A DNA stretch of 38,574 bases, from NCBI GenBank assembly GCA_903852815.1, contig CAINRW010000058.1, positions 1-38,574 on the forward strand, given 5' to 3'. A model generated the notes under the pieces. That model ran no database searches and was not told the origin of the DNA. It saw only the letters and a program-made list of their open reading frames with translations. The stretch comes from an uncultured Actinomycetes bacterium. Lineage in GTDB: Bacteria; Actinomycetota; Actinomycetes; Nanopelagicales; Nanopelagicaceae. A program made the position numbers and the translations under genes. Below are positions 8,525 through 35,525 of this stretch, piece by piece. Numbering within the stretch: position 1 is the stretch's first letter; every line of letters begins with the position of its first letter.

Positions 8525-8567
8525 TTTTGTACAACCAAAACGTAAATAGCACGCAGCGAATCAGCCC

Positions 8568-8876
8568 CTAGAAGCGAGTTTCGTTTATCGCCAATTTCTT
8601 TCGAATTACTTGAGCGAGATCAACATCCAACACGTCCGCTAATCGGATTAAGTAAATCGCAACATCTGCCATTTCAAGTTCTATATCTGATTTCTTCTCA
8701 GGCGATAGTGAACCTGCCATTGATTCCTCAGCTGTCAGCCACTGAAACTCAGCAACTAATTCCCCAGCCTCCCCCGCCACAGCCATAGATAAATTCTTTG
8801 GTGTATGAAATTGCTCCCAATTACGGTCATCAGCAAATGCTCGAATTTCAGTTCTTAATGCTTCTAACTCGTTCAT
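8568..8876 (-). CDS. MazG-like nucleotide pyrophosphohydrolase
   Basis: A 102-residue all-helical MazG/RS21-C6 (dCTPase-like) protein that hydrolyses nucleoside triphosphates to monophosphate and pyrophosphate. The metal-binding motif is complete: Glu36 and Glu39 in GEAGEL and Glu68, Asp71 in ELEMAD. The N-terminal FADDRNWEQFHTPKNL is typical of the family. The protein ends soon after KKLAINETRF, slightly shorter than usual. It follows the DUF2075 gene by 9 bp on the same strand, so the two are almost certainly co-transcribed. Nucleotide-pool depletion or sanitation linked to the partner helicase is an inference. Confidence 0.88.
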   Translation of the reverse strand: MNELEALRTEIRAFADDRNWEQFHTPKNLSMAVAGEAGELVAEFQWLTAEESMAGSLSPEKKSDIELEMADVAIYLIRLADVLDVDLAQVIRKKLAINETRF

Positions 8877-8885
8877 GATTGCCCC

Positions 8886-10742: not shown

Positions 10743-10894
10743 GATTGGATGGTAACTTAGAAATTAGGAAAATGTCGATATTGCTTCAAAATTAATAGGA
10801 AATAAACAGTCATAAAATGCAATGTCTAGGGAAGGAATAAACAGAGTTTAATGAAGAGATTAGAATCCATCCATTATCAAAAACTCAATATTTA

Positions 10895-14307: not shown

Positions 14308-14344
14308 CCCTCTAATTTCTAATAACCTTCACTAACATAAAGAA

Positions 14345-17541: not shown

Positions 17542-17544
17542 GCC

Positions 17545-19698
17545 CTATCGATTTACCAAACCCGCTTGTAGGGCAACTACGAAATCAGGAACTAATTGCT
17601 GCTGACGGGCAAAATACATCGCTGCATCGCTAAAGCGTTCTGGATGCATTTCGGCTTCACGTTCAACAACATATGAAGCGAGTTGTTGAGCCAGCGTTTC
17701 TGAGATTGTTGCGCTTGCCTCTGGGGAGTTTTCATTCTCAAAACCATCTGTTTTATAAGCACCAAAAATGCTTTTAAGTGAACGATGTTTTCCGTACATG
17801 CGAATCATCAATCGGCCTTCTTCGATGCTCGCTGTAACTCTCTGCGGTGGGTTATCACGGCCACTTAATTCGAAGTCCAGTTTTGGATTTCTTTTGTGCC
17901 CTGCTTCAGTAATTCTCACAGTAACTTTAGCCACGGCACTCCCAACAGTTGCGTTAACAACTTCTGTACCCTCGGTTCGACCCGCAACACATACAACACG
18001 TGCTTCGCAGGCAGTTCCTGAAGCATTTGGCTTGAGAGTTACAACAGATTGAGCATCTAAGAGTCCTTCAGTAACTGTCATGTGCGCTCGTTCACCCGCA
18101 TAGGTGATGGGTGCTCTAAGTATGAGAACTTTACGTTTTTCCGGCGCAACACTCACTGTATCTGGATCAAAAACAAGCGAATCGGGAATGGCATCTTCAG
18201 GCGGATCAAAGTCAATAACTGTAACTTCACAAGCTGCAGAAACGTCACTTCTTGTGGCAAAGACTTTTGCGGTACCTATTGATGTCGCTTTGAATCTGAT
18301 TGTGTTGCTTACAACCGGCAAGCGCTCATGCTGGACCCATTTAGATGGATCAGGAATGTCAATAATTTCAATGACATTTGTTCCGGAAGTGATAGAAACT
18401 TGAAGAGGACCCAGATCCATACCTTCTGGTGCGCGTACTGTGAGTGATACTACCTCGCCCTTTTTACAAATGCGCCGCGGAGGAATAATTGTAAGGTCTT
18501 GGAAAAAGTCTTCTGTCCCTGTCTCTGTAGGGATTTCACCTGAGTCACTTGCATCGAGCAATTCCTGTAACTTGTTTGCCAAAGTGTTGCTTAGGGCATT
18601 GAAGCGATTACGTAACTTCTCTCCTTCGCGACGTTGTGCGCCTTCTTCCTCTGCGACAGCTTCTATTAAGGGTTTTAGGTAAGGTTCAACTGCTGCACAA
18701 AGTGCACGCCAATAAGGGTGCTCGCGAACCAATCCTTCTCGACTTCGGCTAATCACACGAGTTGGGTTGTATTCATCCATGCCCCCTTCATCATCAATCG
18801 CACGTGATAAGTCATGTATCTCTGGTGCTTCAAGACGCCCACAGAACCAGCCAACCTCTGGGCGATTAGAAAGATGTAAAAATGTGTTCTCGTAAGTTGC
18901 ACCGCGTCCGCTTACAACTAATCCATGTCGCGAATACCCATTTATAGATCCCAACTCCTTCGTTGGCAAGCGATAAACACTTAGACGTACTGGAAGCTTA
19001 AAATTTGGGACTGCAATGGTCTGATCAAGAACTAATTCGCCAGTTGGAGTCAGACCTTCTAAACGCTTTTTAGTCTTAGTGCGCTCGTCAAAGTAGGTAA
19101 CTTCATTTCGATTGATTAGATCTCGAAGTTGAACGTTTGTTTCCAACTTCTCAACCATTTCAGATGCTGATGGGACACGGTGGCGTTCGTGTAGATAAAG
19201 TTCTGCTGTTAAGCCAGATTCCGCTTCAGATAAGCCCGTTTCTAAACGTGCGTCTGCCGTGGGTGAATCATCGAAGAAGTCCATTTCATATTCTCCTCGA
19301 TGATTAATTTCAAGAGTGCTGTATTTACTATCGCAAATTGAAACAAATCGCGCTCTGCCTAGAGCAGCAATATCTTTTGCACCACGTCCAAAAAGTCCAC
19401 GAGTACCCATTTCGGCGACAGCTTTTTGATTTTTGTCTCCTAGGTTTGTGAAAGCTTCTTCCATACGAGAACCTTGTAGTCCTCCAGCTTTATCACGAAC
19501 GATGAAAACACCTTTATATGGATCAGTAGATTTGATATAACTAATCTCGATATAGCCATTGCCTTTGCCATCATAAGCATCATCGGCATTGGTGATAAGT
19601 TCGATAAGAGCGCGCATGACATCGCCCTTCATGGCTTCTTCGGCATCTTGCTGAAAACCGCGTTGTGTGTATTTAAGTTGACCTTGGCGTTTACTCAT
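17545..19698 (-). CDS. GHKL (Hsp90/MORC-like) ATPase with Ig-like repeats
   Basis: A 717-residue protein. Residues 1-250 form a GHKL ATP-binding fold: N-box Glu33, Asn37 and Asp40 in ELITNADDAY, the G1 element VRDKAGGL (67-74, with Lys where DNGxG is usual) and the lid GLFGRGAKD (101-109). Residues about 345-385 are a charged coiled coil. Residues about 405-610 look like two or three bacterial Ig-like beta domains (KKGEVVSLTVRAPEG; VTVIDFDPPEDAIPDS), uncommon in a cytoplasmic ATPase. The C-terminal 80 residues are helical. Start has GGAGAAG upstream. It sits between the wHTH-like gene and the sigma-4-like gene with 2-3 bp gaps, so the three are expressed together. Confidence 0.82.
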   Translation of the reverse strand: MSKRQGQLKYTQRGFQQDAEEAMKGDVMRALIELITNADDAYDGKGNGYIEISYIKSTDPYKGVFIVRDKAGGLQGSRMEEAFTNLGDKNQKAVAEMGTRGLFGRGAKDIAALGRARFVSICDSKYSTLEINHRGEYEMDFFDDSPTADARLETGLSEAESGLTAELYLHERHRVPSASEMVEKLETNVQLRDLINRNEVTYFDERTKTKKRLEGLTPTGELVLDQTIAVPNFKLPVRLSVYRLPTKELGSINGYSRHGLVVSGRGATYENTFLHLSNRPEVGWFCGRLEAPEIHDLSRAIDDEGGMDEYNPTRVISRSREGLVREHPYWRALCAAVEPYLKPLIEAVAEEEGAQRREGEKLRNRFNALSNTLANKLQELLDASDSGEIPTETGTEDFFQDLTIIPPRRICKKGEVVSLTVRAPEGMDLGPLQVSITSGTNVIEIIDIPDPSKWVQHERLPVVSNTIRFKATSIGTAKVFATRSDVSAACEVTVIDFDPPEDAIPDSLVFDPDTVSVAPEKRKVLILRAPITYAGERAHMTVTEGLLDAQSVVTLKPNASGTACEARVVCVAGRTEGTEVVNATVGSAVAKVTVRITEAGHKRNPKLDFELSGRDNPPQRVTASIEEGRLMIRMYGKHRSLKSIFGAYKTDGFENENSPEASATISETLAQQLASYVVEREAEMHPERFSDAAMYFARQQQLVPDFVVALQAGLVNR

Positions 19699-19700
19699 AT

Positions 19701-20315
19701 TTACTTCTCTTCTCCGTTCAATACTTTACGCTCGACTAGTTGGGCGAATGACATTAATTCGTTGTCTGTTAGAACATCTGCTGCTCTCTTTACATCATGA
19801 ACACGAGATGCCCAGGTGACAGGTGAGCTTGCTGCAGAACATTGAAGTACTGAAGCAAAATCAACAATCGTCAATGAATTTGAATCTGTTTTATAAAGAT
19901 TCCATACATCACTACTCTTTATCTCATGACGCTTTCTTTCGTACATATTTGTTGTTTTCGATGCTTGTACGGGTGAATTTGAATAAACTTTTTCAAGAAT
20001 AGGTAGATAGGTTTCTACCCATCGAACGCCATCCAGTGTTAGGCGACGTGCATATTGGTTTGTGTGATGGAAGAGCCCAACATGAGTCGATGCTTCAACT
20101 GATTGAAGAGCTTTGGAAACCTTCTTGTAGTCAGGGATATCGGGACGCGTACGCCAACTCAACCGTGCAGGGGCTAACTCGTGACACTTCAAGAACATCT
20201 CTTCAACATCTACATCTTTATCTGCCCCGTTGAGAAGATAGAGAGCAAATACGAGTGCATCTTGATTGTTAGCAGTATCACTCGGAGGATCGGTACGGAC
20301 CGTTTTGTTACTCAT
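19701..20315 (-). CDS. Hypothetical winged-helix-like protein
   Basis: About 204 residues from the chosen ATG at 20315 (MSNKTVRTD), which has GGGAGA eight bases upstream; an in-frame ATG at 20345 adds ten residues. The first 110 residues (ALVFALYLLNGA; DYKKVSKALQSVEAS; YARRLTLDGVRWVE) have the helix-helix-strand pattern of a winged helix, suggesting DNA or protein binding. The C-terminal part is helical. No family recognised. It ends 2 bp before the GHKL ATPase start and is the first gene of that trio. Confidence 0.7.
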   Translation of the reverse strand: MSNKTVRTDPPSDTANNQDALVFALYLLNGADKDVDVEEMFLKCHELAPARLSWRTRPDIPDYKKVSKALQSVEASTHVGLFHHTNQYARRLTLDGVRWVETYLPILEKVYSNSPVQASKTTNMYERKRHEIKSSDVWNLYKTDSNSLTIVDFASVLQCSAASSPVTWASRVHDVKRAADVLTDNELMSFAQLVERKVLNGEEK

Positions 20316-20348
20316 AGTAATAAGTCTCCCACTTACGTCTGACATTCG

Positions 20349-20375
20349 GAAAGGGGAGGACTAAGCCCCTCTTTC
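20349..20375 (-). terminator. Weak hairpin between the GIY-YIG gene and the GHKL trio
   Basis: On the minus strand GAAA-GA-GGGG pairs with CCCC-TTTC around a 9-nt loop (8 bp with a 2-nt bulge), with no U tract after it. It may be a partial terminator, so the trio downstream could be read through from the GIY-YIG gene. Confidence 0.3.
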
Positions 20376-20420
20376 GAGAAATGGAGGCAATTTGTGAAAC
20401 AACCTTTGAAGAGTTCAATA

Positions 20421-21452
20421 TTAGTGCGCCACCTTTGGCTCGACAATGAGGGCAATAGTTTCTGCTCCTTGAATCACGCAAGCGTTGTACTCCACTGGAT
20501 ATGCAGCTTGGAGAGATGTCTTGTCAAAGGAAATTGTTTCCTTCTTCTCGCGCTTCCATGTGCAGATATATTCAATGCCATCTGCACTACCGGTCATAAC
20601 TCGGAGCTTTACGTTGGCAATATCTACTTTCCACTCTGCATACTTTCTTATTTCATGCACACCTAGATGCTTCTCGTGCAGCGCAAATCCAGTATCCATA
20701 GAATGATCTGCATTCAGTAACTGATCTTTGAAGGATGCAATTAGTTCAACCTGCTCTTCGCCAAGAAGACCTAAATCAGGAATCCAGTCCTTGGCAGGCT
20801 TAATCCTGAAAGAGCCCTTGATTGGATAAGTTGTCGTTGAGTACTTCTTGAATAGTTCTGGGTACTTGGAGGCAAATAGTTTTTCATCAAATCGTTTAGC
20901 GCCAGATCGAGTTTGAACAGAGGCACGACCCGAAACGTCGATGCCCTGCTCAATAGCTTGATAGATGTAATTGTCATATTGAATCAAAGCTTCATCACAT
21001 GCATCAAGAATGACCTTGAGGTCTTGAATCTGTACGTACCAGTCTTCAGCTTCCTCGGTGGCTTCAATCTTTGAGCCATTGCTAATGGTCGTCTTCAATA
21101 CCTTGGCAGTCTTATAGTCCTCGATATTTTCACTCATTTCAGCAGCTAACTCTTTAGCCTTCTTTATTGCGCTTTGTAATTCGGCATCGTTGAAATGCAT
21201 CCACTCCCCCATCACGCGATTACGGGCAAAGAGGTAGTGCAGATTGGTTTCAACAGCTTCAACGGCAGGCATAGATAACGCTTCAACTATGCATAACTTG
21301 CGTGGGTTTCCGGTTTGGTGTTCGAGCAATCGATTCTTTGAATCACGTCCGTCGGCATCGCGCACAATACCTATTTTGTAATAACTAGACCGTGATCCAG
21401 TTTTCACATCTTGCTCGTTAATGAAATAGAGCTGACCTGGGGTTAAAATCAT
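20421..21452 (-). CDS. GIY-YIG nuclease-domain protein (T5orf172-like)
   Basis: A 343-residue protein. Residues 1-95 match the GIY-YIG fold of the T5orf172 type: LYF (8-10), YKIGI (25-29), Arg41, His45, then VETNLHYLF with Glu68 and His72, and GEWMHF (82-87). These are the positions expected for an active metal-dependent nuclease. The C-terminal 200 residues are not recognised; they have a helical stretch and a beta-rich end (LRVMTGSADGIEYICTWKRE) that may recognise DNA or partners. An AAGGA motif lies eight bases upstream of the start. It follows the 171-residue unknown by 48 bp. Confidence 0.8.
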   Translation of the reverse strand: MILTPGQLYFINEQDVKTGSRSSYYKIGIVRDADGRDSKNRLLEHQTGNPRKLCIVEALSMPAVEAVETNLHYLFARNRVMGEWMHFNDAELQSAIKKAKELAAEMSENIEDYKTAKVLKTTISNGSKIEATEEAEDWYVQIQDLKVILDACDEALIQYDNYIYQAIEQGIDVSGRASVQTRSGAKRFDEKLFASKYPELFKKYSTTTYPIKGSFRIKPAKDWIPDLGLLGEEQVELIASFKDQLLNADHSMDTGFALHEKHLGVHEIRKYAEWKVDIANVKLRVMTGSADGIEYICTWKREKKETISFDKTSLQAAYPVEYNACVIQGAETIALIVEPKVAH

Positions 21453-21500
21453 TTATCAATCCTTCCGATATACGGCTGTAAATACAATGCTTTTCGGGTC

Positions 21501-22016
21501 TTAATCATCAATACCCCCAAGTGATTCTTGGTCGGGGTGCTTGCGAGCCTTCTTTCGTGCTGTTTTCTTTTCAACAGGCTTAAGCATCAAGTTGCGAGTT
21601 TGATAAGTCCCTTCGATAGCTGACCGAATAATGTCCTCCATGCTTGATTCATGAAGTGTGTATGAAAAAGTAGTAAAACTGTCATCCTCCTTCGTGCTCA
21701 CGATTTCTACATGAGCGCGAATAGTTTCTTTGATTGTTGGCTGGGTAGCCTTATTGCCGATTCGTGCCTGTTGTACACGAACAAATGTGACGAACTCTTT
21801 GCGTCCTCCAGGTCCAACATCTACGGCGCGTATCCGCATTACATAGTGCGTTGTCATGGGAATTTCGATTACAAGCTCATGCTTTACGCGACGCTTAGTA
21901 AAGATGATGCCAAGTGCGCGCAGTTGATTGATAACGAAATCTTCCTCCATGCGTGCTGCAACTTCTGGCAAGAGTTCGCGTAACTGACCTGCTGATGGTG
22001 TGATTTCAAATGACAT
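21501..22016 (-). CDS. Hypothetical protein, 171 aa
   Basis: An alpha/beta protein starting MSFEITPSAGQLRELLPEVA, with repeated beta strands in the middle (VIEIPMTTHYVMRIRAVDV) and a very basic Lys/Arg-rich tail near residues 147-162 (KKTARKKARKHP). No family recognised. Its start overlaps the end of the preceding 69-residue gene by 11 bp, which suggests coupled translation and a complex with fixed stoichiometry. Confidence 0.7.
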   Translation of the reverse strand: MSFEITPSAGQLRELLPEVAARMEEDFVINQLRALGIIFTKRRVKHELVIEIPMTTHYVMRIRAVDVGPGGRKEFVTFVRVQQARIGNKATQPTIKETIRAHVEIVSTKEDDSFTTFSYTLHESSMEDIIRSAIEGTYQTRNLMLKPVEKKTARKKARKHPDQESLGGIDD

Positions 22017-22215
22017 TGACTAATCCTTTCTTCATGAAACTCTTAACTACAACGCCATCGCGGACGATTTCGGTAATTGTGGTTTTGCGAATCATCTGAC
22101 CTTGTGGGTACTTATAAGTGGTTGTAACGTCAAATTCCTTTAGCGTTAGTCTCCCGAATTTAATGCCTAGGTGACTACGGATGGCTTCTTCGATAAGTGA
22201 TATCTCAGGCAGCAA
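22006..22215 (-). CDS. Small hypothetical protein, TTG start
   Basis: About 69 residues, beginning LPEISLIEEAIRSHLG after an initiating TTG at 22215. I chose this start because GAGGGGAG lies seven bases upstream; the frame also runs back to 22272 but that version overlaps the previous gene by 68 bp without a ribosome binding site. Contains a strand pair (EFDVTTTYKYPQGQMIRK). The ends overlap the neighbours by 11 bp on both sides. No family recognised. Confidence 0.6.
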   Translation of the reverse strand: MLPEISLIEEAIRSHLGIKFGRLTLKEFDVTTTYKYPQGQMIRKTTITEIVRDGVVVKSFMKKGLVNVI

Positions 22216-22681
22216 GTGAGAACTCCCCTCTCTTGGTTGAGTCAAAGAGCTCTGAATATTCCTCGACTCCAAGTTTGGTCAGGTGGTACTGAGGAACTGC
22301 ATGCTTGTGGCACTCGTAATAGCGCTTCTCGGATCGATGGCTCGTACGGCCTTCTGACTCAGCCTTGTGGCGGGTTCTACGCGCTTTACTCACTCGCATC
22401 TTTGCCACTTCGATGTCGCGAATTGAGTCTTTTTTGCACTCAGCCGCAAATTTAATTAGCAGGGCATTCTTGGGCTTCTCTCCCTTTTTCCTATGGACAA
22501 ATTTGCCAGGCTCCCTTTTTTGGGATTTGTCCTTGGCTACCGCAAATCGACGATCCCATTTGAAGTCTTCTTCTACATAGTTTTTAACCATTTGCAGTGC
22601 CTCTCGTAATCTTTTAACTGGCCTGACAACTTGTAAAACCAGCGTCTTACTTATGTTTTTTGAGCTTTTTACGTCTCGCAC
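22205..22681 (-). CDS. Basic hypothetical protein, GTG start
   Basis: A 158-residue strongly basic protein, starting at GTG with AAGGAA about ten bases upstream. The middle (KRYYECHKHAVPQYHL, and the Arg/Lys-rich SKARRTRHKAESEGR) suggests nucleic-acid binding; the C-terminus is LTKLGVEEYSELFDS. No family recognised. It is the first gene of the set leading to the GIY-YIG gene and is divergent from the plus-strand gene at 22884. Confidence 0.65.
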   Translation of the reverse strand: MRDVKSSKNISKTLVLQVVRPVKRLREALQMVKNYVEEDFKWDRRFAVAKDKSQKREPGKFVHRKKGEKPKNALLIKFAAECKKDSIRDIEVAKMRVSKARRTRHKAESEGRTSHRSEKRYYECHKHAVPQYHLTKLGVEEYSELFDSTKRGEFSLAA

Positions 22682-22883: not shown

Positions 22884-24032
22884 TTGGCGGTCGCCACGAA
22901 GCGATATGTGGAGACCGCTTATAACGAAGTGCGCTCAGAACTGGAATGGAGTTACCTTCCGTCGGCGATTCTCGCGATCTGGGGGGAATCTCCCTTATCG
23001 GCATCGGACCGAAAGGCCTCAATGAGCGCCCAATTAGAGGGACTCAGGGACATTTGCCAGATCATTGCAACATTTCCCGGGTCAACGGCTGTCAGGAAAA
23101 TTCACGAGGTGCTTGTACGAACAGACGCAATGGCGAACTCGCATAACGAAAAAGCTATGGCAGAAGAGTTTTTCAATCTAACGATTTACTATGTGCGAGT
23201 TCAAAATTTCGCTCGTCACATGAAAACATCCGTGAATAATCACTTGCGAGCATTAGGAATAGATCCTCGAAGTGAGTCAACATTTTCCTCCTACGAAACA
23301 TCGCTGTTTGAGATGGAACAGATTGGAAAAATTGCTACAGCCCTTAAGCAACAAACACTCAACAATGCTGACGAAGTCAACACTTGGGCAGATAATGTCG
23401 CCGCCCTCCTTGTGAGTACTAACGAGAATGAAAGGACGCGTCGCTCTCAAACAAGTGGCGATTATTCATTCATGCAAGCTGGCAGTCGAACTCGTGGCCT
23501 AGTTGCAAGCGGGGGTTTAGTTTCTTATAAACTTAGGTTTAAGCAAGCCATCGCAGCCACTTTGGGCATAGATTTGAATATGCCAGACACAAAACTCGAA
23601 AGAACGATTACCAAGTCAATTTCGGATCAACTGAAGGCACTCGGTGAACTTCCAAGTTCTAGTTCACCACTTTATAAGAAACTAGTGGAACTACAACCTC
23701 AACGAATTTCAAAATCGAAGTCAAATTCATCTAACTTCTTATGGGAACTAAAGACAGATAGAAATGAAAATCCTAAGAAGAATTTACACAAACATGTACT
23801 CCAGCTTGATGGTCGCAATCTCATAATTGAGGCTTCTTCACAGGCCTATACGACAGAATTGATTGATGGAATCATGAAAACTGTAAGTATCCAAATGGAA
23901 TTGAATCCAACTGCTAAGGAACTACTTGCTACTTTTGAGAGTAAGGACCAATTAATCCGAATTACACTTGAAAAGCCACAACGGGTGGATCAACGCAAAA
24001 TTGCGCAGGTCCTTGCTCAGCTTGCAAAGTAG
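22884..24032 (+). CDS. Hypothetical protein, 382 aa, TTG start
   Basis: No family recognised. It begins at TTG (22884) with AGAAGGTGA eight bases upstream. Residues 1-190 are helical (SAQLEGLRDICQIIATFPGS; EEFFNLTIYYVRVQNFARH). The middle contains RTRGLVASGGLVSYKLRFKQ. The last 80 residues form an alpha/beta unit (LIIEASSQAYTTELIDGIMK; QRKIAQ-like end) that could be a dimerisation domain. It is the only plus-strand gene between 14.3 and 38.5 kb, divergent from the basic-protein gene and convergent, 1 bp apart, with the PLD gene. Co-inheritance with the GIY-YIG set is plausible. Confidence 0.7.
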   Translation: MAVATKRYVETAYNEVRSELEWSYLPSAILAIWGESPLSASDRKASMSAQLEGLRDICQIIATFPGSTAVRKIHEVLVRTDAMANSHNEKAMAEEFFNLTIYYVRVQNFARHMKTSVNNHLRALGIDPRSESTFSSYETSLFEMEQIGKIATALKQQTLNNADEVNTWADNVAALLVSTNENERTRRSQTSGDYSFMQAGSRTRGLVASGGLVSYKLRFKQAIAATLGIDLNMPDTKLERTITKSISDQLKALGELPSSSSPLYKKLVELQPQRISKSKSNSSNFLWELKTDRNENPKKNLHKHVLQLDGRNLIIEASSQAYTTELIDGIMKTVSIQMELNPTAKELLATFESKDQLIRITLEKPQRVDQRKIAQVLAQLAK

Positions 24033-24033
24033 C

Positions 24034-25368
24034 CTAATCCTTTGGAATTAGATCTAGCCTCATAGGTCTTCCCTGATTTGTACATTCTTCCATCATAAGA
24101 TTAAATCGCTTTTGGACGACATTTGCATTGGTTCGCATTTCACCAATTTCTGTACGGTATTTTCGCCGCTTATCTCCCATAAATGAAAGCCAGTTAAAAC
24201 TTGTTGCAATATAGACATCATCATAAATCAAGATCTTGGCGTGGCTCTCATTTAACTTTATAAATTGAAAGTTTTTTGGATACTTTTCTGACAATTTAAA
24301 AAGCGCCTCGAGTGGGCGTTTACTACTTTTGTTTGCCTCGCTTGGGCGATCGGTTCCAAATCCCCAGGCAATGACTACGTTCACATTTCGCTTAAGCAAG
24401 CTTTCTAGTTTTCCCAGGAAAAGCGAGGTAACAACTCTTTCATTTACCCATGGAGACATAATTAGCAAGCGCTTTGAGGCTGTATCCAAGGCCTCTTCTA
24501 AGAGAGGGGCGTGTTCATAAGGACCAATTGGGCCCCCGTCCTCAGTCGTTTGCGGTGCATCTACAGGACTACTTAAGGCTTTTAAAGTGGCAAGCGCCTC
24601 GCTCGCTCCAACTTTTTCAAAGTCTATGCCTAAAGACTCAAGTCCACCCGCTGCTCGAAGAATTGATTCATGTTCCATAGAGCGCTCATCATTAATCACA
24701 ATAATGAAATCAGATTCTCCGGTTTCTGAATAAAAAATCATTAGTTTGGCTATCTTAAATCCGTATCTGCGTTTTAAAACTCTATGTATGTGGTGTACTT
24801 CGAATTTGGCTCGCTTATTCTGCTTTTCAAGAACTCGATTAATTTGAATTATGTCAAGATCTGCCTGACCAATTGTGTGTTTTTGTGTCTTACCCATCTC
24901 ATAATATGAGGTTTTAGTTTTGTCGAGTGAACTCTTGGTCTCAAAATCACTAAATGGCCAAGACTTAATTTGCCATTGCGCATTGTCGAAAATAATCTGC
25001 TTAGTCGTCGATTTTGGCGTTTCCGCTTGTTTTGTTCGTAAGGTCTCACGGCCTTGAGGCCTAATCGCAATTTTGGTCGGGCTTCCCGAATAGCTCAAAT
25101 TACCCGCTAATTCTTCTAGAGCAATGAGGTCCATTATCAGGCTTTCAGAAAAGCCTAGCGCCTCAGCTAAACCTTCAATCGAATCAATACCTAAATCCAC
25201 AAATCTCAAAATGTATTCTGTGGTCGGCAAAATTTCATCTGTTTGCTGCCCTAACACATCGATATCTAATTTGGATATTGGAATAGCAATATTTTCTATA
25301 GCCAACAATTTTAGATGTTGGTGGACAGATGCATACCGCGCTTCGAGGAATTTATATCGGTCAATCAT
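24034..25368 (-). CDS. PLD-superfamily nuclease-like protein
   Basis: A 444-residue protein with one phospholipase D (PLDc_2-like) domain in its last 160 residues. The catalytic motif is His376-x-Lys378-x4-Asp383 in HAKILIYDD, followed by ATSFNWLSF; MSPWVNE marks the start of the domain. One HKD motif means it would act as a dimer, as Nuc/BfiI-like nucleases do. Residues 1-270 are unknown and include a helical region and an alpha/beta region (EVHHIHRVLKRRYGFKIAKL). The ATG at 25368 overlaps the stop of the kinase-helicase gene by 8 bp; longer in-frame starts lie well inside that gene. The overlap points to a two-gene system. Confidence 0.82.
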   Translation of the reverse strand: MIDRYKFLEARYASVHQHLKLLAIENIAIPISKLDIDVLGQQTDEILPTTEYILRFVDLGIDSIEGLAEALGFSESLIMDLIALEELAGNLSYSGSPTKIAIRPQGRETLRTKQAETPKSTTKQIIFDNAQWQIKSWPFSDFETKSSLDKTKTSYYEMGKTQKHTIGQADLDIIQINRVLEKQNKRAKFEVHHIHRVLKRRYGFKIAKLMIFYSETGESDFIIVINDERSMEHESILRAAGGLESLGIDFEKVGASEALATLKALSSPVDAPQTTEDGGPIGPYEHAPLLEEALDTASKRLLIMSPWVNERVVTSLFLGKLESLLKRNVNVVIAWGFGTDRPSEANKSSKRPLEALFKLSEKYPKNFQFIKLNESHAKILIYDDVYIATSFNWLSFMGDKRRKYRTEIGEMRTNANVVQKRFNLMMEECTNQGRPMRLDLIPKD

Positions 25369-28300
25369 AATCTTTACCCATAACTTGGAATGCTGGATTC
25401 TTCTGCTCGTCGATATAGCGTGCGACACCAGATAAAGCTGAGGACGTGCCAGTCCAGAAATCTTTATCACCAATGATGTGTAACGAATAACGTGCTCGAG
25501 ACAACGCTACATTTATACGACGCCAATGCTTGGCACCCAAGAATCCAACCTCGGAACGATCATTTTGTCTAACACATGAAAAATAGACTATATCTGCTTC
25601 ACGGCCTTGAACTGCATCGATTGAATTAAACTCAATGCTAAAAGGATATTCCTTAACATTGGTAATAATAGATTTTGCCTGGATAATCTGAGCAGCGTAT
25701 GGCGCAATAATCAAGACTTCAAACGGTTTTTCAGGTTTCAGTAGTCCCAAATCAATAAAGTTCCGCAACTGCTTTAATTTATCTCGAATGATAAGTATTT
25801 CATTTCTATTGGAATAGGATAATTTGTCACGGAATTCTGTCTTTTCGCGGTTGGGATAATTGGACGTGTCGTCCCATGAAACTGCAGGGAAAAATGAGGC
25901 AATCTTCGAATCCAGCTTCGGCCCTTTGGATTCTAGAGCATTCGGGTAGAACAAATCAGCAATCATTTGTCCTATCTCGTCCCGCATGCGGTACTGAACA
26001 TTTAAAGAAGTTTTTGCGCTCTCTGGTAATTCTTTATCAAGGAATGAAAATATTGATTCTTCAACTTCATCCGCAGATATCTCATACCTGTTTAAAATTT
26101 CTTTACTTTCCTTGCTTTTCAACTCAATCTCGGATGTAGATAGCTGATTGCTGTCACCGACTACAATCCACTTAGACGATCTGACCATGGAGACAAGCGC
26201 TTGACTAATAGTTGCCCGAGAAGCTTCATCAATTATGCAGATATCAAATTCTAGTTCCCTGACGGCTGGATGAGACATAAATCCGAGACATGTGCCCGCT
26301 AATACTCTACGAGTCTGCAGAAAAACTGAAGTTAGCTGACTCGAAGATCCCACTCGCTCTAACCACTTTGCCTGCGTATCCACCAATTTAATAAACTCTT
26401 TTGTAACTCTCTTGGAACCCAACAAGGCCCCTCTTATTTGTTCTATGTCGAGTCCATCGTAATTCTTAGGGATTGTCAATTTACTTGCCAACTGGTCACG
26501 CAATCGAAGAAACATACGCTCTTCATCTTCGGTTTTCTTTTTTAAGAGTTCCACCGTAGTCAGAGATGATTCGCGACTTAAATCTAAATCATTATAATTG
26601 GATAATTCTGGCTCAGAAACTTCCTTTTTAAGATCTTCTATACTTGTACGTATCTCATCGAGCTCATAAAGAGTTAGAAGTGCGCGTGCATCATCCAAAT
26701 TTATCCCCAAGTTTTGTGCTTGACGGTCAATGAATCCGTTCGAATTGGAACGTAAATCTTTCATCCATTCTTGCATCTGTGTATCAATCAAAAGCTTTTT
26801 ACTTCGTGTTGCGATGCGTATGTCATCAGCCGCACCCAACCGGACACAATCTGAAATATCGCTGTCCATGAGTCGATCTAAAGCATTATCAAGAGCTACG
26901 TGTGTTTGACTCACTAGTAAAATTCTTGCATTCGGATTTCTTTTTAACTCTTGATGCACATATTCAGCAATAAAACTAGTTTTTCCAGTTCCGGGAGGGC
27001 CTTGCACTAAGAGGAAATTCTTAGCACCTAAAGCCTTCTCCACCGTTAACCGCTTGGATTCGTCCAAATTCTTATTTCTCCAATGTTGCACCGTCTTTGG
27101 TGTGAAACTTGGCACCTGAGAAAGGTTTGCCAATAAATCGCCCAACTTTGGTTGAATTGATGAACGTTTTAAAAGTGAGTTAATAGCATCCCGTTGCTTA
27201 CGTAACTGCGAAGCTTCCCCCGCTTCCAATTCTGGAATCAGGAGTCCCGCCTTTCTAATCTTTCCTCGGGGCGCACGGACTAAGAGAAGTTCCATTTCAC
27301 TTCCAATATGAGCCATAACTTCACCAATTTCAGGATTTCCAAAATCCATTTTCCAAAATGTTCCCTCGAGTTCATCGTCAATTGGGTCTTCAAGCTCTAG
27401 TGATATGCGTGATCCCTCGATGGATGCATTCTTATACTTCAATGTTGTGAAATTTTGAATTGCAGCTTCCTCGCGAGCGTCCAAAATCTTGTTCCATCTG
27501 CTGGCCAACTTCTCGATATCCTGGTGAACATACTCCAACATTTCTCCATCGGGACGTCCACTATTTATCCATTCTGAAAATTTATGTGTGATAAAGATAA
27601 AGCCTTCCGAATATTTCTTAGACTCATTCATATTGGCATTTACTCCCCAGTCGATACCAAAATTTCCAAGTTCGAGACACGTTCTACGGTAAAATTCCAA
27701 CTCCTCTGATGTAGCTACATTTCCATGCACCGCAGTCCAGCCTGACTTCTGGCTATTTGCCACTAAGTGCAACTTCATCTGATCAGAAATTAGCCAGAAT
27801 TCCTTTTTATTGTATGTTCCATCTTCATTTTGAATTGGGGAGGCATATAGATTTTTTGATAACTCTTTTCTCAAAGCAACTTCTAAACTAGGAAATCCAT
27901 CGGCAAGTGGCGCAAGTTTGGTACGAACTCTGTCGTCAAGTTTAATCCATGCGAAATACTTATTTTTGTTTTGTAATTTAAGTACGTTCTGACCTCTCTG
28001 TACTAAAGCATAGTTGAGTTCAATCGCACTTGAATATCTGTCCTTTGGGTCAAGTTCAAGACATTTCTTGATTATGTCCTTTGTTTCTTTACTCAAAATT
28101 TCCTTACCATTAGATTTTGTGTCGAGCAATGAAAGTGCATTATCTCTATTCATTGGTCTAATTTTTGTTAGAATTTCAATAGCGAGCACACCAAAAGAGT
28201 AAACATCATGCTGCGCGGATGATCCTTGTACTTCCGGAGTGAAAACGCCAGAGGTCCAATGTAAGTTTGTCATTTCAGTTTCTTGCGGTCCGTACAATTT

Positions 28301-28753
28301 TGCTGCACCGAAATCAGAAATTATTGGGCTTAATATAAAATCATCAATCATGATATTGCTTGGCTTAATATCTCTGTGAAAAACTTTGTTCTCATGGGCA
28401 TATGCAAGGGCGCTGGCGATTGGCATGACTAGGCTCATGAGTCGATTAACAGGAGTTAATCCATTATTCGCAAACAGATACTCTTCAAGATTATTCTCAA
28501 ACCATGGCATCACAATAATGCCAAAATCATTTTCTATGTCGTGATCAAGAATTTGTATGACACCACTATTATCTAAACGCGAGAGAGCCTTGACTTCGCG
28601 TTGATATGACTGTGCTAGTTGAGGATTATCTAATTTTGTAGTTTTAACCGCAACTCGCTCTTCCGTCTCGGTGTCGATACATGCAAAAACTTTAGCCTGC
28701 CCGCCTTGTTGGATTCGCTCTTCATCGATAATTTCAAATCTTTCGAGGAACAC
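25361..28753 (-). CDS. Ser/Thr protein kinase fused to SF1 (UPF1-like) helicase
   Basis: A 1130-residue fusion. Residues 1-255 are a Hanks-type kinase that keeps its catalytic set: Lys37 (VAVKT), Glu53, HRDIKPSN (126-133) and DFG (147-149). Residues about 270-560 are not recognised. Residues about 565-1110 are an SF1 helicase of the UPF1/SMUBP2 type: GPPGTGKT (585-592), Walker B DEAS (842-845), GDSNQL (866-871), QYRM (920-923), then AVQGREADIVYF and VALSRARYSLHII. No transmembrane segment is seen. The start is GTG with GGAG six bases upstream. It overlaps the PLD gene. Kinase control of a helicase-nuclease pair is inferred from the fusion. Confidence 0.9.
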   Translation of the reverse strand: MFLERFEIIDEERIQQGGQAKVFACIDTETEERVAVKTTKLDNPQLAQSYQREVKALSRLDNSGVIQILDHDIENDFGIIVMPWFENNLEEYLFANNGLTPVNRLMSLVMPIASALAYAHENKVFHRDIKPSNIMIDDFILSPIISDFGAAKLYGPQETEMTNLHWTSGVFTPEVQGSSAQHDVYSFGVLAIEILTKIRPMNRDNALSLLDTKSNGKEILSKETKDIIKKCLELDPKDRYSSAIELNYALVQRGQNVLKLQNKNKYFAWIKLDDRVRTKLAPLADGFPSLEVALRKELSKNLYASPIQNEDGTYNKKEFWLISDQMKLHLVANSQKSGWTAVHGNVATSEELEFYRRTCLELGNFGIDWGVNANMNESKKYSEGFIFITHKFSEWINSGRPDGEMLEYVHQDIEKLASRWNKILDAREEAAIQNFTTLKYKNASIEGSRISLELEDPIDDELEGTFWKMDFGNPEIGEVMAHIGSEMELLLVRAPRGKIRKAGLLIPELEAGEASQLRKQRDAINSLLKRSSIQPKLGDLLANLSQVPSFTPKTVQHWRNKNLDESKRLTVEKALGAKNFLLVQGPPGTGKTSFIAEYVHQELKRNPNARILLVSQTHVALDNALDRLMDSDISDCVRLGAADDIRIATRSKKLLIDTQMQEWMKDLRSNSNGFIDRQAQNLGINLDDARALLTLYELDEIRTSIEDLKKEVSEPELSNYNDLDLSRESSLTTVELLKKKTEDEERMFLRLRDQLASKLTIPKNYDGLDIEQIRGALLGSKRVTKEFIKLVDTQAKWLERVGSSSQLTSVFLQTRRVLAGTCLGFMSHPAVRELEFDICIIDEASRATISQALVSMVRSSKWIVVGDSNQLSTSEIELKSKESKEILNRYEISADEVEESIFSFLDKELPESAKTSLNVQYRMRDEIGQMIADLFYPNALESKGPKLDSKIASFFPAVSWDDTSNYPNREKTEFRDKLSYSNRNEILIIRDKLKQLRNFIDLGLLKPEKPFEVLIIAPYAAQIIQAKSIITNVKEYPFSIEFNSIDAVQGREADIVYFSCVRQNDRSEVGFLGAKHWRRINVALSRARYSLHIIGDKDFWTGTSSALSGVARYIDEQKNPAFQVMGKDYD

Positions 28754-29055: not shown

Positions 29056-29142
29056 TTATGGCTTCACTGCCTGCACAGATAGTTTTGGATCAGAATTAAT
29101 GATGTCCAAACCAAAGCGATGCTGATGTATTTGATAGCGCAT
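29056..29142 (-). CDS. Tiny ORF coupled by TAATG
   Basis: A 28-residue frame, starting MRYQIHQHRFG, whose ATG overlaps the stop of the previous gene as TAATG and has GAGGAG four bases upstream. The coupling and ribosome binding site argue that it is translated. Together with 28847-29053 it may be a frame-shifted remnant of a single protein of about 95 residues. Confidence 0.35.
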   Translation of the reverse strand: MRYQIHQHRFGLDIINSDPKLSVQAVKP

Positions 29143-29696
29143 TAATCTCCTCGAAGCCTTGGTCCATAAACAAGCTCATGGACTGGACCGGGTAAAGGTG
29201 AAATTGGACTTAGGCACCCAAGAATCAACGGGACTTCAGTCGTACCGCCGAGGTAACCCATCTCCTGAGCAAGCTTTTCAAAAGAAGTAAGTGAGCCAGC
29301 ATCTCTTGGGCTTATTATCTTTAGGAACTCATTTGATGCCGCAAGCAATAGGGATTGCTTCACCTTTTCTTTTCCTGTCATTTTAATGACATCAAACAAT
29401 TCAGCTCCAACACTCATTTGATGTCTAAAAGTAATTCGAACCCAGGTATCCCCTTTGCGATATCGAGAATTATTTCCTTCCCAGTCATTTGCCGGAAATC
29501 GTTCATCAATGATTTCATTCAAATATTTCTGAATCCCAAATGCAGTTATTTTTCCTTTAGAGCTTTGAATAGCTCTGATAGTCGTAAAACGTGTAGCAGC
29601 CTCATTCCAGATGCCGTTTAATAAGCTCAAAGCTTCAATTGACTCAGGTGAAGGATCTTGGGTGTACCAGGTTGGTCGCTTCAAATCAGCTTTCAA
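29142..29696 (-). CDS. Hypothetical protein, possibly restriction-endonuclease-like
   Basis: A 184-residue protein starting at TTG (29696), chosen because AAAGGAG lies six bases upstream and the start overlaps the stop of the PLD-SNF2 helicase gene by 11 bp. The core DWEGNNSRYRKGDTWVRITF, then SVGAELFDVIKM, then EVPLILGCL vaguely recalls BglII-type endonucleases, but I cannot point to a clear catalytic D..ExK or ExQ set. Translational coupling to the helicase is the firmest evidence for a joint role. Confidence 0.6.
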   Translation of the reverse strand: MKADLKRPTWYTQDPSPESIEALSLLNGIWNEAATRFTTIRAIQSSKGKITAFGIQKYLNEIIDERFPANDWEGNNSRYRKGDTWVRITFRHQMSVGAELFDVIKMTGKEKVKQSLLLAASNEFLKIISPRDAGSLTSFEKLAQEMGYLGGTTEVPLILGCLSPISPLPGPVHELVYGPRLRGD

Positions 29697-32600
29697 TATT
29701 GGCTCCTTTAACTTTTCCCAAGATTCTAAAGCGCACGCCTTCTGTATTAATCTGATGGAAAGGCTTAACTGACAGGTTTTTAGTTGTTACTCCACTTTGG
29801 TGCTTCGGAACTAAGTATTCGGAATTTAGTGCCTCTCCCATTGCCCAGGGCAGCTTTTCTTCAGTGAAAGTTTCCGTTGAATAATGAGATTCTTCGATAT
29901 TTGAAATTCCCGAAGCAGCCAGTAGAAGAGCACCAATAGCATTCGCTTTGAGAAGTCTAAAAGATGAATTCGAATCTCGAATCGCAAAAACTAAGGGGCC
30001 AACTTCGTTTTCGAATACACCAACTTCAAGCCAGTCAGATTCTACAATTGGCGCAGTACCTATTTCCGAAGCTGCATGTAGAGCGGGCGACTTCAAAGTT
30101 AGGGATCCTCTACGTCCTACCTCTGAGGTATATACGAAACTTGAAAATACACTCGGCGCATAACTGGCTACTGCCTCAATAAATTTGAACAAGTCTTCGC
30201 GCAATGCTTTCGAGGGAGGTAAATCTAATGATCCACGTTGCCAAACCTCTTCCAAAGCCACCCGTTGAAAATGGTTACGCATGGCTTTTAATTCAGTTAA
30301 AGGGTCAGCGACTATTCCGGTATTCGACAATCTATCGGATACAGCTGCCTTAATCGCTGATCCAAATATTTCGGGAAACTCTCCTACTGCTATTTGATAT
30401 TCGTCTCTTCGTTCTAACAATCTGCGATACATCTGTGCTTCCACGCTTCGTGGGTACCAGAGGTTAACAATTTCAACTTCTGCTGCTTTTTGGCCAAGAC
30501 GAGCGATACGACCAATTCGCTGCTCTAGCCGTGCTGGATTCCAAGGGACATCAAGATTGATGATGGCCTGGGCAGATTGAAGATTCAAACCTTCCGATGC
30601 AGCGTCTGAGCAGAACACAATCTTAATTCGACCATCTTCTAAGGCATCGGTTACATCATTCTTGGTTGCAACAGTGACTGTGCCACCGTTTCTTATCCAG
30701 ACATCACCGCCCGAATATAAGGAATATCCATCAATTTCATTTGCAAGGCTGGACTTTTCAAAGTATTCGAGAAATCCATCCAAGGTGTCGGTGTATCTCG
30801 AAAAAACAAGCACAGGTCCGATTTTAACCTTCTCATTTAATTGACTAATTGCTTCAATAAACTTCGGATCATTGGCCGATAAATCTTCACCTATAGCATC
30901 TAATTCTCGCACTAAGTCCGTTAGGGTCTGGACTTCTAATGAAATTTCATACTTAACGTTCTCTAATATTTGAATAAGTCTTTCACTTTCTATTGCAAAT
31001 CCATCAAGACGCTCGTAGCCTTCATCGAAACCATCATCATCATCAGCCAGTAAATTAAAATATTGACTGATTACTTCGTAGTTACCGTTTATAAGTTCAT
31101 TTCGAATTTGCGACAGTTTTTCTTTACGCCTGGAAAGACTTTTGTGCGCGGCAAAAAGTGATGACACTAGTCGCTGATAGTAAGTTGACTTAGCAAATCC
31201 GATTGGAAATGAATCATCAGGACGAATCGCCATTTCAGAACGACCATATCCATTCGATAAATAGGACTCTAAATGTGTCTCGAATCGAATGTGTGCAGGT
31301 GTCATGGAAACCGCAGGGGCGGTGAACTTGCGTGCTGGAAATTTGTAACCAAATTCCTCTAGACCGGTCTTAGTATTTCTACAGGTCAAGAAATTTGCTG
31401 GATGTATTTTCATTAAGATACTTCGATACTGATCAAAACTCTTTTGTATCAAACTAGCTCTGTCGAATTGTCCAGCTTCTGCTAAACCTACGAGTTTCAA
31501 GATGTATTCATATTCATCATTCGTGAGAACCTTAGGAAGCCATTCACTATTTTGATAGGTTGAGAGCACAAGCGTTGCGAGGTCAGCCGCATCTTGTAAT
31601 GTAGGTTTCGGATTTACTTTTGCAATAATTTGTAAGGACTTTTCATACATAGTAAATGAATCCCATGGCGAAGGAAGTCCTAAAATCTTCAAAAGGCTGT
31701 GATACTCACCTGGATGTATCTGCATAGGTGTGGCCGTCATTAAAACGATATGCGAGACATCATTTTTTACTCTATCTAAAAGTCTCCACAATAAAGTAGC
31801 TTTATGGCTACCATAATTATCTATTTGGACTCGAGCAGCATGGGCTTCATCCACAAACAACATTTCGGGTAACGACTGCGAAAACAAATCAGGATTCTGT
31901 CTAGCCCATTGAGCTGAAACTAGTTGTAACTGTGGCGCCCCGGCGCCGCCGAACCCGTGAGATTTACTCCAATTATTACCATTTGCAACATAAGTTTTTG
32001 TTCCGGAATTCCATTTCCAGAACATTAAATCAAAATGTTTTGTCATTTCATCTTGCCATTGCGAAAGCAAACCAGCTGGGGCCAAAATTGTAATCTTAGA
32101 AATTTTTTGGACCCTATGCATGTAGGAGATCACCGCACCAGCTTCTAAAGTTTTTCCTAGCCCAACCTCATCAGCCATTAAAACCCTTACTGGCCATCTA
32201 TTTAGAGATTCAACATAAACACGTTCTTGATGGGGGTAAAGCGCCGCAGTTACAATGTTGTTTGGAGTAAATAGTGGAGACTTTAGCGCTAAGTCCAAAA
32301 TTTCAGATGTGATGTTTTGAGTTGTATCCGTAGGCTCTTTTTCAGAAATTAGTGGATTCTCGGGATTACCCAATGTTCTCAAAAGATTGGTCACAAAGCC
32401 TTCATCCAATTCGTGAATTTCAATCGATTCCTCTTGCCCGTTCCAAATTTGCTCAAAACTCGTAGCTAGAGGTTCAATCATCGAAGGATCTGAATTCCAG
32501 GAAAAATTAAAATGCATTTCTTCAATATTGTCTTGGCCGCCGCGCGTCTCATTTAAACTTCCAGTTCCAGCGATGACGTTTCCAATTTCGTCTCTAAAAA

Positions 32601-33048
32601 TCATGCGTTTTTGGTGATAGATACCAGTTGAATGACGTGGCGCGGCAATTTTAACTTCCAAATAATTGAGTTTCATCATCCAGCCGATTGTGGTTATTGC
32701 ATTTCTTTCCACTTCGGAGACGAGATACCCAATTTCATTCAAGAGCCGTTTCTTGCACTCATTGACCAATTCAGTCGGAAGTATATTTCCCATAGTCCAT
32801 GCCGCAACCAAATCAACTGGTACGTCATGAATACCTATCACGAGACGCATCTTTCCGTTGCGTCGAAAAAGTTCTTCTAAGCCTTCTGCAACTGAAACTA
32901 AAGCATTTACTGAAAAATAGCCTGTGAGCCGATCATAGGAAACGGACTCGCGTAGAACGGGTTTGACGAAATTATCTAAAATTTCACGACCTGGGGCAGA
33001 ATAGAAATTCCTTATTTGTAATTTTGTAAAATCGCTAGCTGGTTGCAT
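29686..33048 (-). CDS. PLD-SNF2 helicase fusion
   Basis: A 1120-residue protein. Residues about 30-205 form a PLD-like domain with His145-x-Lys147 and Asp153 (YHQKRMIFRDE) followed by GTGSLNE. Residues about 265-880 are a complete SNF2/RapA-type SF2 ATPase: DEVGLGKT (293-300), DEAH (400-403), TATPM (438-442), then VLVFSRYTDT, SDAASEGLNLQSA and QRIGRIARLGQ in the second lobe. The C-terminal 240 residues are unknown. It starts 3 bp after the stop of the 220-residue gene and overlaps the next gene by 11 bp. Likely a double-strand DNA translocase that delivers a nuclease. Confidence 0.9.
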   Translation of the reverse strand: MQPASDFTKLQIRNFYSAPGREILDNFVKPVLRESVSYDRLTGYFSVNALVSVAEGLEELFRRNGKMRLVIGIHDVPVDLVAAWTMGNILPTELVNECKKRLLNEIGYLVSEVERNAITTIGWMMKLNYLEVKIAAPRHSTGIYHQKRMIFRDEIGNVIAGTGSLNETRGGQDNIEEMHFNFSWNSDPSMIEPLATSFEQIWNGQEESIEIHELDEGFVTNLLRTLGNPENPLISEKEPTDTTQNITSEILDLALKSPLFTPNNIVTAALYPHQERVYVESLNRWPVRVLMADEVGLGKTLEAGAVISYMHRVQKISKITILAPAGLLSQWQDEMTKHFDLMFWKWNSGTKTYVANGNNWSKSHGFGGAGAPQLQLVSAQWARQNPDLFSQSLPEMLFVDEAHAARVQIDNYGSHKATLLWRLLDRVKNDVSHIVLMTATPMQIHPGEYHSLLKILGLPSPWDSFTMYEKSLQIIAKVNPKPTLQDAADLATLVLSTYQNSEWLPKVLTNDEYEYILKLVGLAEAGQFDRASLIQKSFDQYRSILMKIHPANFLTCRNTKTGLEEFGYKFPARKFTAPAVSMTPAHIRFETHLESYLSNGYGRSEMAIRPDDSFPIGFAKSTYYQRLVSSLFAAHKSLSRRKEKLSQIRNELINGNYEVISQYFNLLADDDDGFDEGYERLDGFAIESERLIQILENVKYEISLEVQTLTDLVRELDAIGEDLSANDPKFIEAISQLNEKVKIGPVLVFSRYTDTLDGFLEYFEKSSLANEIDGYSLYSGGDVWIRNGGTVTVATKNDVTDALEDGRIKIVFCSDAASEGLNLQSAQAIINLDVPWNPARLEQRIGRIARLGQKAAEVEIVNLWYPRSVEAQMYRRLLERRDEYQIAVGEFPEIFGSAIKAAVSDRLSNTGIVADPLTELKAMRNHFQRVALEEVWQRGSLDLPPSKALREDLFKFIEAVASYAPSVFSSFVYTSEVGRRGSLTLKSPALHAASEIGTAPIVESDWLEVGVFENEVGPLVFAIRDSNSSFRLLKANAIGALLLAASGISNIEESHYSTETFTEEKLPWAMGEALNSEYLVPKHQSGVTTKNLSVKPFHQINTEGVRFRILGKVKGANIES

Positions 33049-33051
33049 GAA

Positions 33052-33714
33052 TTATTCTTCATCCAGGGCATCAAGAATTTGATTACAAATTTCCGAATCT
33101 CCATCTTTCGAATTGCGCGAAACGGCTCCACCTTTAGCCAACTGTTGAAGTAAATCTTTTGCAAATGCAATTTGCGCTCCGCTTAGTGATCCGGCAGATC
33201 TTTTTGTTCTCTCAAAACCTTTTAACGCTTTGCGACTTTTCTCAGTTAATAACTGAAAAGCTTCGGCTTTCTTCGCTGCATGACCAAATACTTCCGATGG
33301 TAGAGCGCCAACTTTTTCCAAAACTGATGGACCCGTTATGTTCCTAATCGCCGCCTCAACTACAGATGATGGGGAATGTTTTGCTTCTGGAGAATTGAGT
33401 GCTTCCAGCGCAGCTTTGATTGCACCGGTAGATGCCGAAGCCAGACTAAACCAAGTTGTAGGAGGCGGGTTTTGTCCAGCGAGAAGCAAAAGACTTTCTT
33501 CATCAAGTGACGCTAAATTTAGCGCCGCTTGAAGCTCTGCAGGTCTAACATCCAGAGCGACCGCGCCTATTTTTAATGTCATACCTGCTGATGCAAACGC
33601 ACTGGAAATATTAGTAAGCCACTGATCAAAGGATAATTCTTCGACATTCTGCCAAGCATTTATTAACTTGGTGAACTTATCTTCTGAGTAGTTATCTAAT
33701 GATTCACTTGTCAC
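33052..33714 (-). CDS. Hypothetical helical protein, 220 aa
   Basis: A helical, Ala/Leu-rich protein. Residues 30-75 contain a possible helix-turn-helix (FASAGMTLKIGAVALDVRP; AELQAALNLA) and residues 155-190 are basic (KSRKALKGFERTKRSAG). No family recognised. Its start overlaps the end of the GHKL ATPase gene by 11 bp and its stop lies 3 bp before the PLD-SNF2 gene, so it is bound into that operon, perhaps as an adaptor between the ATPase and the helicase. Confidence 0.7.
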   Translation of the reverse strand: MTSESLDNYSEDKFTKLINAWQNVEELSFDQWLTNISSAFASAGMTLKIGAVALDVRPAELQAALNLASLDEESLLLLAGQNPPPTTWFSLASASTGAIKAALEALNSPEAKHSPSSVVEAAIRNITGPSVLEKVGALPSEVFGHAAKKAEAFQLLTEKSRKALKGFERTKRSAGSLSGAQIAFAKDLLQQLAKGGAVSRNSKDGDSEICNQILDALDEE

Positions 33715-35173: not shown

Positions 35174-35258
35174 AAAATTCTCCCCCTAAATTCGGTAAAG
35201 CGTAGCGATACACCTACTAATAAAGCTATAACTTGAACATTCAAATATGGTTAATTTC

Positions 35259-35522
35259 TCAATTTCTATAATCTGGACAACAGTTTCTGCATGGCCTTTT
35301 TGAGGCGAATGCGACTCTCCACCCAACTGGATTAATTGGGTGAATATTCATACCTTTTTCACCTGCCTCCTCTTGGCCAGCGGCCAAAGTTTCACAATTG
35401 GGACGATTGTGAAAGGCTAATCCGCCACTGGTTATGTATACGATTTTGTTTATTCCTACCGGTGGCATTTTGCAATGCGAGCACTCCCCGAACATAAAGT
35501 CATGAATACATCTATCCGTCAT
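35259..35522 (-). CDS. Small Cys/His-rich, probably zinc-binding protein
   Basis: An 87-residue protein. Cys5, Cys14 and Cys17 (GECSHC) form a first likely zinc site, and His38, Cys43, Cys78 and Cys81 (RPCRNC) a second; Cys82 follows. The segment VYITSGGLAFHNRPNCETL between them is typical of small domains seen next to DNA-processing enzymes, but I do not recognise the family. It starts 3 bp after the stop of the SF2 helicase and lies 85 bp before the GHKL ATPase, all on one strand. Confidence 0.65.
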   Translation of the reverse strand: MTDRCIHDFMFGECSHCKMPPVGINKIVYITSGGLAFHNRPNCETLAAGQEEAGEKGMNIHPINPVGWRVAFASKRPCRNCCPDYRN

Positions 35523-35525
35523 AAA

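What the first reader, a model, noticed from the sequence alone, without database searches (positions are those of the whole stretch)
25361..28753. Active Ser/Thr kinase fused to a UPF1-like helicase, overlapping a PLD gene
Seen: all key kinase residues (Lys37, Asp128, Asp147) and all main SF1 motifs are present in one 1130-residue protein; the PLD gene overlaps its stop by 8 bp. Known: kinases occur in phage defence (for example Pgl/BREX type 2 and Stk2) and PLD nucleases in others, but I do not know a named system with this exact fusion. Inference: phosphorylation may switch a helicase-nuclease effector.
Basis: partly seen in the sequence, partly recalled or inferred. Interest (0 to 1): 0.78.

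Follow-up and report, generated by a model that had tools for sequence, protein, structure and literature searches.

The report
Mokosh type I phage defence pair
The kinase-helicase fusion and the overlapping nuclease gene are real and look intact, but together they are a two-gene bacterial antiviral system already described as Mokosh type I, so this locus is one more copy of a known system.

Summary
The minus-strand gene 25361-28753 encodes a 1130-residue Ser/Thr kinase fused to a UPF1/IGHMBP2-type SF1 helicase. The ATG of the next gene (24034-25368) overlaps its stop by 8 bp. The second protein has a winged-helix domain and a single-HKD PLD nuclease domain. The claim that no named system has this architecture is wrong. 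PADLOC's MkoA model matches the fusion nearly end to end (585.6 bits) and its MkoB model matches the PLD protein (179.1 bits). This is Mokosh type I. The pairing is conserved: 72 of 80 MkoB loci from other species have the fusion in one open frame upstream, and all 17 plasmid fusion loci inspected have a gene in the MkoB position. Kinase, Walker A, DEA and HKD residues are invariant among the homologs aligned. Nothing sets this copy apart except ordinary divergence. How the kinase acts in Mokosh is unknown, so the phosphorylation-switch idea is open, not refuted. A possibly undescribed detail lies outside the window: alphaproteobacterial Mokosh loci carry a third gene for a PP2C phosphatase, some with a degenerate PLD motif.

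The parts
25361..28753 (-). mkoA: Ser/Thr protein kinase fused to UPF1-like SF1 helicase, 1130 aa, GTG start
   Evidence: PADLOC PDLC03920 MkoA 585.6 bits, residues 4-1118 on profile 8-1101/1112; Pfam Pkinase, AAA_11, AAA_12; AlphaFold model mean pLDDT 85.1
27980..28753 (-). kinase domain, residues 1-258; K37, D128, D147 present
   Evidence: Pfam; fold matches PknB 5u94 Z 26.0, rmsd 2.5 over 237 residues; residues invariant in 38 homologs
27542..27979 (-). middle region, residues 259-404, predicted alpha/beta, no domain assigned
   Evidence: no Pfam match; outside the aligned range of most fold matches, so barely tested
25463..27541 (-). UPF1/IGHMBP2-type helicase region, residues 405-1097, including the helical stalk and barrel before RecA1
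   Evidence: IGHMBP2-RNA complex 4b3g Z 31.8, rmsd 5.3 over 493 residues, model range 411-1130; AAA_11/AAA_12
24034..25368 (-). mkoB: winged-helix plus PLD nuclease, 444 aa, ATG at 25368, overlapping mkoA by 8 bp
   Evidence: PADLOC PDLC03922 MkoB 179.1 bits, 5.7e-53; start and overlap read directly; model mean pLDDT 87.6
25027..25236 (-). winged-helix domain of MkoB, residues 45-114
   Evidence: matches MarR-family structures, Z about 12-13, rmsd 1.6-1.7 over about 69 residues
24049..24546 (-). PLD-like nuclease domain of MkoB, residues 275-440
   Evidence: Foldseek top hit Nuc 1byr 5.2e-08; SauUSI nuclease domain Z 16.0, NucT 14.6, BfiI 14.1
24193..24243 (-). single HKD motif HAKILIYDDVYIATSFN, residues 376-392
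   Evidence: H376, K378, D383, S390, N392 invariant in 29 homologs

Best explanation
The two genes are a complete, apparently intact Mokosh type I antiviral system, probably acquired by horizontal transfer and sitting in a defence island. Shown here: gene pair, domains, catalytic residues, predicted folds and conserved adjacency. Inferred mechanism: MkoA is the sensor/motor. Its UPF1-like helicase engages phage RNA (or an RNA- or ssDNA-containing intermediate) and recruits or activates MkoB. MkoB, bringing one HKD half-site per chain, dimerises like Nuc or BfiI to form an active nuclease that cuts the bound nucleic acid. The kinase most likely regulates the complex by autophosphorylation or phosphorylation of MkoB; its substrate and the sign of its effect are unknown. 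I put about 0.5 on the helicase-guided nuclease step and about 0.3 on phosphorylation being the on/off switch. The confidence given below is for the identification as Mokosh type I.
For: MkoA and MkoB profiles are the best hits and MkoA is matched nearly end to end. In 72 of 80 MkoB loci a kinase-helicase fusion frame lies upstream, and several of the other eight are truncated or split frames; all 17 plasmid fusion loci inspected have a gene in the MkoB position. Catalytic residues are invariant across 38 MkoA and 29 MkoB sequences aligned. The MkoB C-terminus folds like nucleases that use one HKD per chain (Nuc, NucT, BfiI, SauUSI). The helicase folds like IGHMBP2, UPF1 and DNA2. PMC10925250 places MkoA and MkoC in the SF1_Upf1 family. 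Neighbouring genes are defence genes. No same-genus genome listed has a full-length relative.
Against: The best MkoB stretch covers profile positions 7-386 of 610, so this MkoB is a short or divergent member. Identity to the relatives found is only about 24-32%. No activity data exist for this copy. The RNA-targeting step rests on helicase family and on one paper's statement (PMC11291487), whose source I could not read.
Confidence: 0.95

Rival explanations
1. A separate, unnamed defence system that only resembles Mokosh, because the fusion and PLD pair arose independently.
For: Low identity (24-32%) to other members; MkoB profile only partly covered.
Against: Near end-to-end match to the MkoA profile, the same gene order, invariant motifs along the whole length and the same MkoB winged-helix plus PLD layout in actinobacteria, cyanobacteria and proteobacteria.
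Confidence: 0.03
2. The genes serve RNA quality control or DNA repair of the host, as UPF1/IGHMBP2 helicases do in eukaryotes, not defence.
For: The helicase fold is closest to IGHMBP2, UPF1 and DNA2.
Against: Sporadic distribution: absent from the same-genus genomes sampled, found on plasmids, and here inside a run of restriction and other defence genes.
Confidence: 0.05
3. Same Mokosh system, but the kinase phosphorylates host or phage proteins (a Stk2-like abortive kinase) and is the effector itself, with helicase-PLD as the sensor.
For: The kinase is intact and conserved; relatives in alphaproteobacteria keep kinase and helicase but have lost the PLD HxK motif and gained a PP2C phosphatase, so the PLD nuclease is not always the effector.
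Against: In most loci, including this one, the PLD motif is kept (78 of 80; the scan pattern included the SFNWLSF motif, which favours such loci), which argues that its nuclease activity matters.
Confidence: 0.2

Closest known systems
Mokosh type I (MkoA + MkoB; my recollection: Millman et al. 2022, Cell Host & Microbe, not held in the library)
   Same: Kinase fused to a UPF1-like helicase followed by an adjacent PLD gene; PADLOC MkoA and MkoB profiles match; gene order conserved.
   Different: Divergent sequence; short MkoB (444 aa against a 610-position profile); no NERD domain found by Pfam, which PMC10952713 lists for Mokosh type I.
Mokosh type II (MkoC)
   Same: UPF1-like helicase and PLD; the MkoC profile hits both proteins weakly.
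   Different: Type II is a single protein (my recollection); here there are two genes and a kinase.
Nuc / NucT / BfiI / SauUSI nuclease domains
   Same: MkoB residues 275-440 share the single-HKD PLD fold.
   Different: MkoB carries a winged helix and, by inference, depends on a helicase partner.
Stk2 and PD-T4-6 defence kinases
   Same: Intact Ser/Thr kinase in a defence setting; PD-T4-6 profiles hit the kinase domain.
   Different: As I recall these are defence kinases without a helicase; here the kinase is fused to a helicase.
Eukaryotic piRNA factors MOV10L1 and PLD6/Zucchini
   Same: UPF1-type helicase plus single-HKD PLD (MOV10L1 from memory); mouse and fly Zucchini appear among MkoB fold matches; domain homology of Mokosh to the piRNA pathway is noted in PMC11291487.
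   Different: No kinase and no guide-RNA system seen here; the link is by domain only.

Membership tests
Mokosh type I | MkoA: Ser/Thr kinase fused to UPF1-like RNA helicase | tested here: met
   PDLC03920 585.6 bits over 4-1118; Pfam domains; folds
Mokosh type I | MkoB: PLD-domain protein | tested here: met
   PDLC03922 179.1 bits; PLD fold; HKD intact. Pfam alone does not detect it
Mokosh type I | The two genes adjacent and in the same direction | tested here: met
   8-bp overlap; fusion frame upstream of MkoB in 72 of 80 loci
Mokosh type I | Protects bacteria against phage | not testable with these tools
   needs a phage challenge
Mokosh type II | Helicase and PLD in one polypeptide, no kinase | tested here: not met
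   two separate genes and a kinase domain
Pgl / BREX type 2 | Kinase PglW with PglX, PglY, PglZ | tested here: not met
   the PglW model scores 43 against a cut-off of 990 and hits only the kinase; no PglX/Y/Z match shown among the island proteins scanned

The most novel reading that the evidence does not exclude
Mokosh type I is a phosphorylation-gated helicase-nuclease: MkoA autophosphorylation, or phosphorylation of MkoB, holds the PLD nuclease off until the helicase engages phage RNA. The PP2C phosphatase that accompanies MkoA/MkoB in alphaproteobacteria would be the counter-switch of the same circuit.
Probability: 0.25. Interest if true: 0.5.

Novelty: already known. Interest (0 to 1): 0.13.

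Why it matters
As a locus it is ordinary: another Mokosh type I, useful mainly as a divergent, compact member. The mechanism of Mokosh is still unresolved in the papers I could read, and the role of the kinase is a real open question. The conserved residues listed here, and the PP2C-bearing relatives, suggest clean mutants to test it.

Tried and rejected
Single-protein related-loci scans with the fusion found no relatives in genome contigs or viral contigs, because the peptide patterns taken from this divergent copy are not shared; an MkoB alignment solved this. No phage record holds the fusion at 80% coverage or more. A PDB sequence search for MkoB found nothing at E up to 1; only the fold search showed PLD. 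A family search with the MkoA profile in relatives is swamped by ordinary kinases, so it was not used as a prevalence estimate. A plan to count PP2C-bearing loci in alphaproteobacterial genomes failed because no genome handle was available as a centre. Pgl/BREX type 2, MADS, Hhe and PD-T4-6 were considered and dropped: their profiles match only one domain. The library searches returned no paper devoted to the Mokosh mechanism and none on Mokosh with a protein phosphatase.

Full report
What is there. The minus-strand frame 25361-28753 (GTG start with AAGGAG about eight bases upstream) encodes 1130 residues. Pfam finds a protein kinase at 11-242 and the AAA_11/AAA_12 pair of UPF1-like helicases at 562-1097. 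The kinase has K37, D128 and D147, and the helicase has its Walker A (GPPGTGKT), DEAS and VALSRAR motifs.

What it is. PADLOC's MkoA profile PDLC03920 matches the fusion over residues 4-1118 (profile 8-1101 of 1112) with 585.6 bits, and MkoB PDLC03922 matches the second protein with 179.1 bits. These are the two genes of Mokosh type I. PMC10952713 lists a PLD-like domain in Mokosh types I and II, and PMC10925250 places MkoA and MkoC in the SF1 Upf1 helicase family. That type I is defined as kinase-helicase plus PLD, and that it comes from Millman et al. 2022, is my recollection; the paper is not in the library. Its functional guess of phage defence is right.

Conservation of the pair. Among plasmid records, 19 hold the fusion at 80% coverage or more. 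I inspected 17 fusion loci; in each, a gene of 434-617 residues follows the fusion directly, most often with a 4-bp overlap. From an MkoB alignment, a scan of the 84,980-species genome collection returned 80 loci. In 72 of them an open frame holding both kinase and helicase lies upstream of MkoB, almost always directly so, and 78 keep the HxKx4D motif. The others include contig ends and split frames. The scan used motif patterns from MkoB, so the 78 of 80 is biased towards intact motifs, but the fusion count is not. The adjacency is far beyond chance.

Active sites. In the 38 MkoA sequences aligned K37, H126-R127-D128, N133, D147, GPPGTGKT and D842-E843-A844 are invariant. In 29 MkoB sequences H376, K378, D383, S390, N392 and E407 are invariant. 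Against the plasmid set, this copy departs from the canon mainly in its glycine-rich loop (QQGGQAKV) and in motif III (QLST for QLPP). Nothing suggests a dead copy.

Structures. AlphaFold2 models made only from window and genome-locus sequences were good (MkoB mean pLDDT 87.6; MkoA 85.1). MkoB has a MarR-like winged helix at about 45-114 and a PLD domain at 275-440 resembling SauUSI, NucT, BfiI and Nuc. From established knowledge, Nuc and BfiI have one HKD per chain and need two chains for one active site, so MkoB should act as a dimer (inference). MkoA's first 258 residues match PknB and other kinases, and residues from about 409 to the end match IGHMBP2, UPF1, DNA2 and senataxin. Residues 259-404 were not assigned a fold.

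Setting. The island holds a type II methyltransferase with a MutH-like restriction enzyme, two GmrSD proteins, a Schlafen group 3 helicase, a GIY-YIG-type protein and a second helicase/ATPase cluster. Same-genus genomes listed lack a full-length fusion and an MkoB, which suggests horizontal acquisition. The host has a small genome (1.63 Mb), probably a streamlined actinobacterium judging from its small same-genus genomes and large-genome class mates; that is inference.

Mechanism. Shown: intact kinase, helicase and nuclease sites and conserved pairing. Inferred: MkoA senses and moves along phage RNA and delivers MkoB, which cuts. PMC11291487 states that Mokosh degrades viral transcripts, citing a source I could not read; a 2026 review, PMC12926258, lists Mokosh among systems of unknown mechanism. 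The kinase's role is open.

A side finding. In alphaproteobacteria a third overlapping gene follows MkoB and encodes a PP2C phosphatase (Pfam) with its metal-binding motifs present. In the five inspected plasmid loci the MkoB HxK motif is gone, while in L093, L108 and L113 it is kept. In Microvirga, Agrobacterium and Sinorhizobium the kinase loop reads HRDLNPRN. No paper in the library joins Mokosh with a protein phosphatase. This is outside the window but is the more novel lead.

Verdict. A correct and careful observation of an already described system. Interest is low for the locus and moderate for the kinase question it illustrates.

Noticed in passing
L032:7837-8562, L034:7930-8739, L035:7870-8652, L039:7870-8655, L040:7837-8655; also L093, L108, L113 downstream of MkoB: Alphaproteobacterial Mokosh loci have a third gene directly after MkoB, a PP2C phosphatase with intact metal-binding motifs. 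The five plasmid loci inspected have lost the PLD HxK motif, three genome loci keep it; this may be an undescribed subtype.
   Followed up: partly
L030:6399-8252 and L029:6372-8141: Mycobacterial MkoB proteins carry an extra C-terminal S1 RNA-binding domain, which fits RNA targeting; the M. marinum pRAW copy lacks the His of the HKD motif.
   Followed up: partly
window 29142-38243: A same-strand cluster next to Mokosh: SNF2-type helicase with PbeA/DrmD-like profile hits, a MORC-like GHKL ATPase, a helicase resembling the dnd_restrict_1 restriction protein, and two proteins of unknown family. It looks like another multi-gene defence system.
   Followed up: no
window 13051-15676: Convergent type II cytosine methyltransferase and MutH-like restriction enzyme.
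   Followed up: no
window 15814-22681: Minus-strand cluster with a protein resembling the MzaA sigma-like C-terminus, a GHKL-ATPase protein and a GIY-YIG-type (MUG113/T5orf172) protein; possibly a divergent Mza-like system.
   Followed up: no
window 6454-12829: Two GmrSD-family proteins and a Schlafen group 3 helicase side by side.
   Followed up: no
window 22884-24032 (+): 382-residue protein convergent with mkoB, ending next to its stop, without any family match.
   Followed up: no
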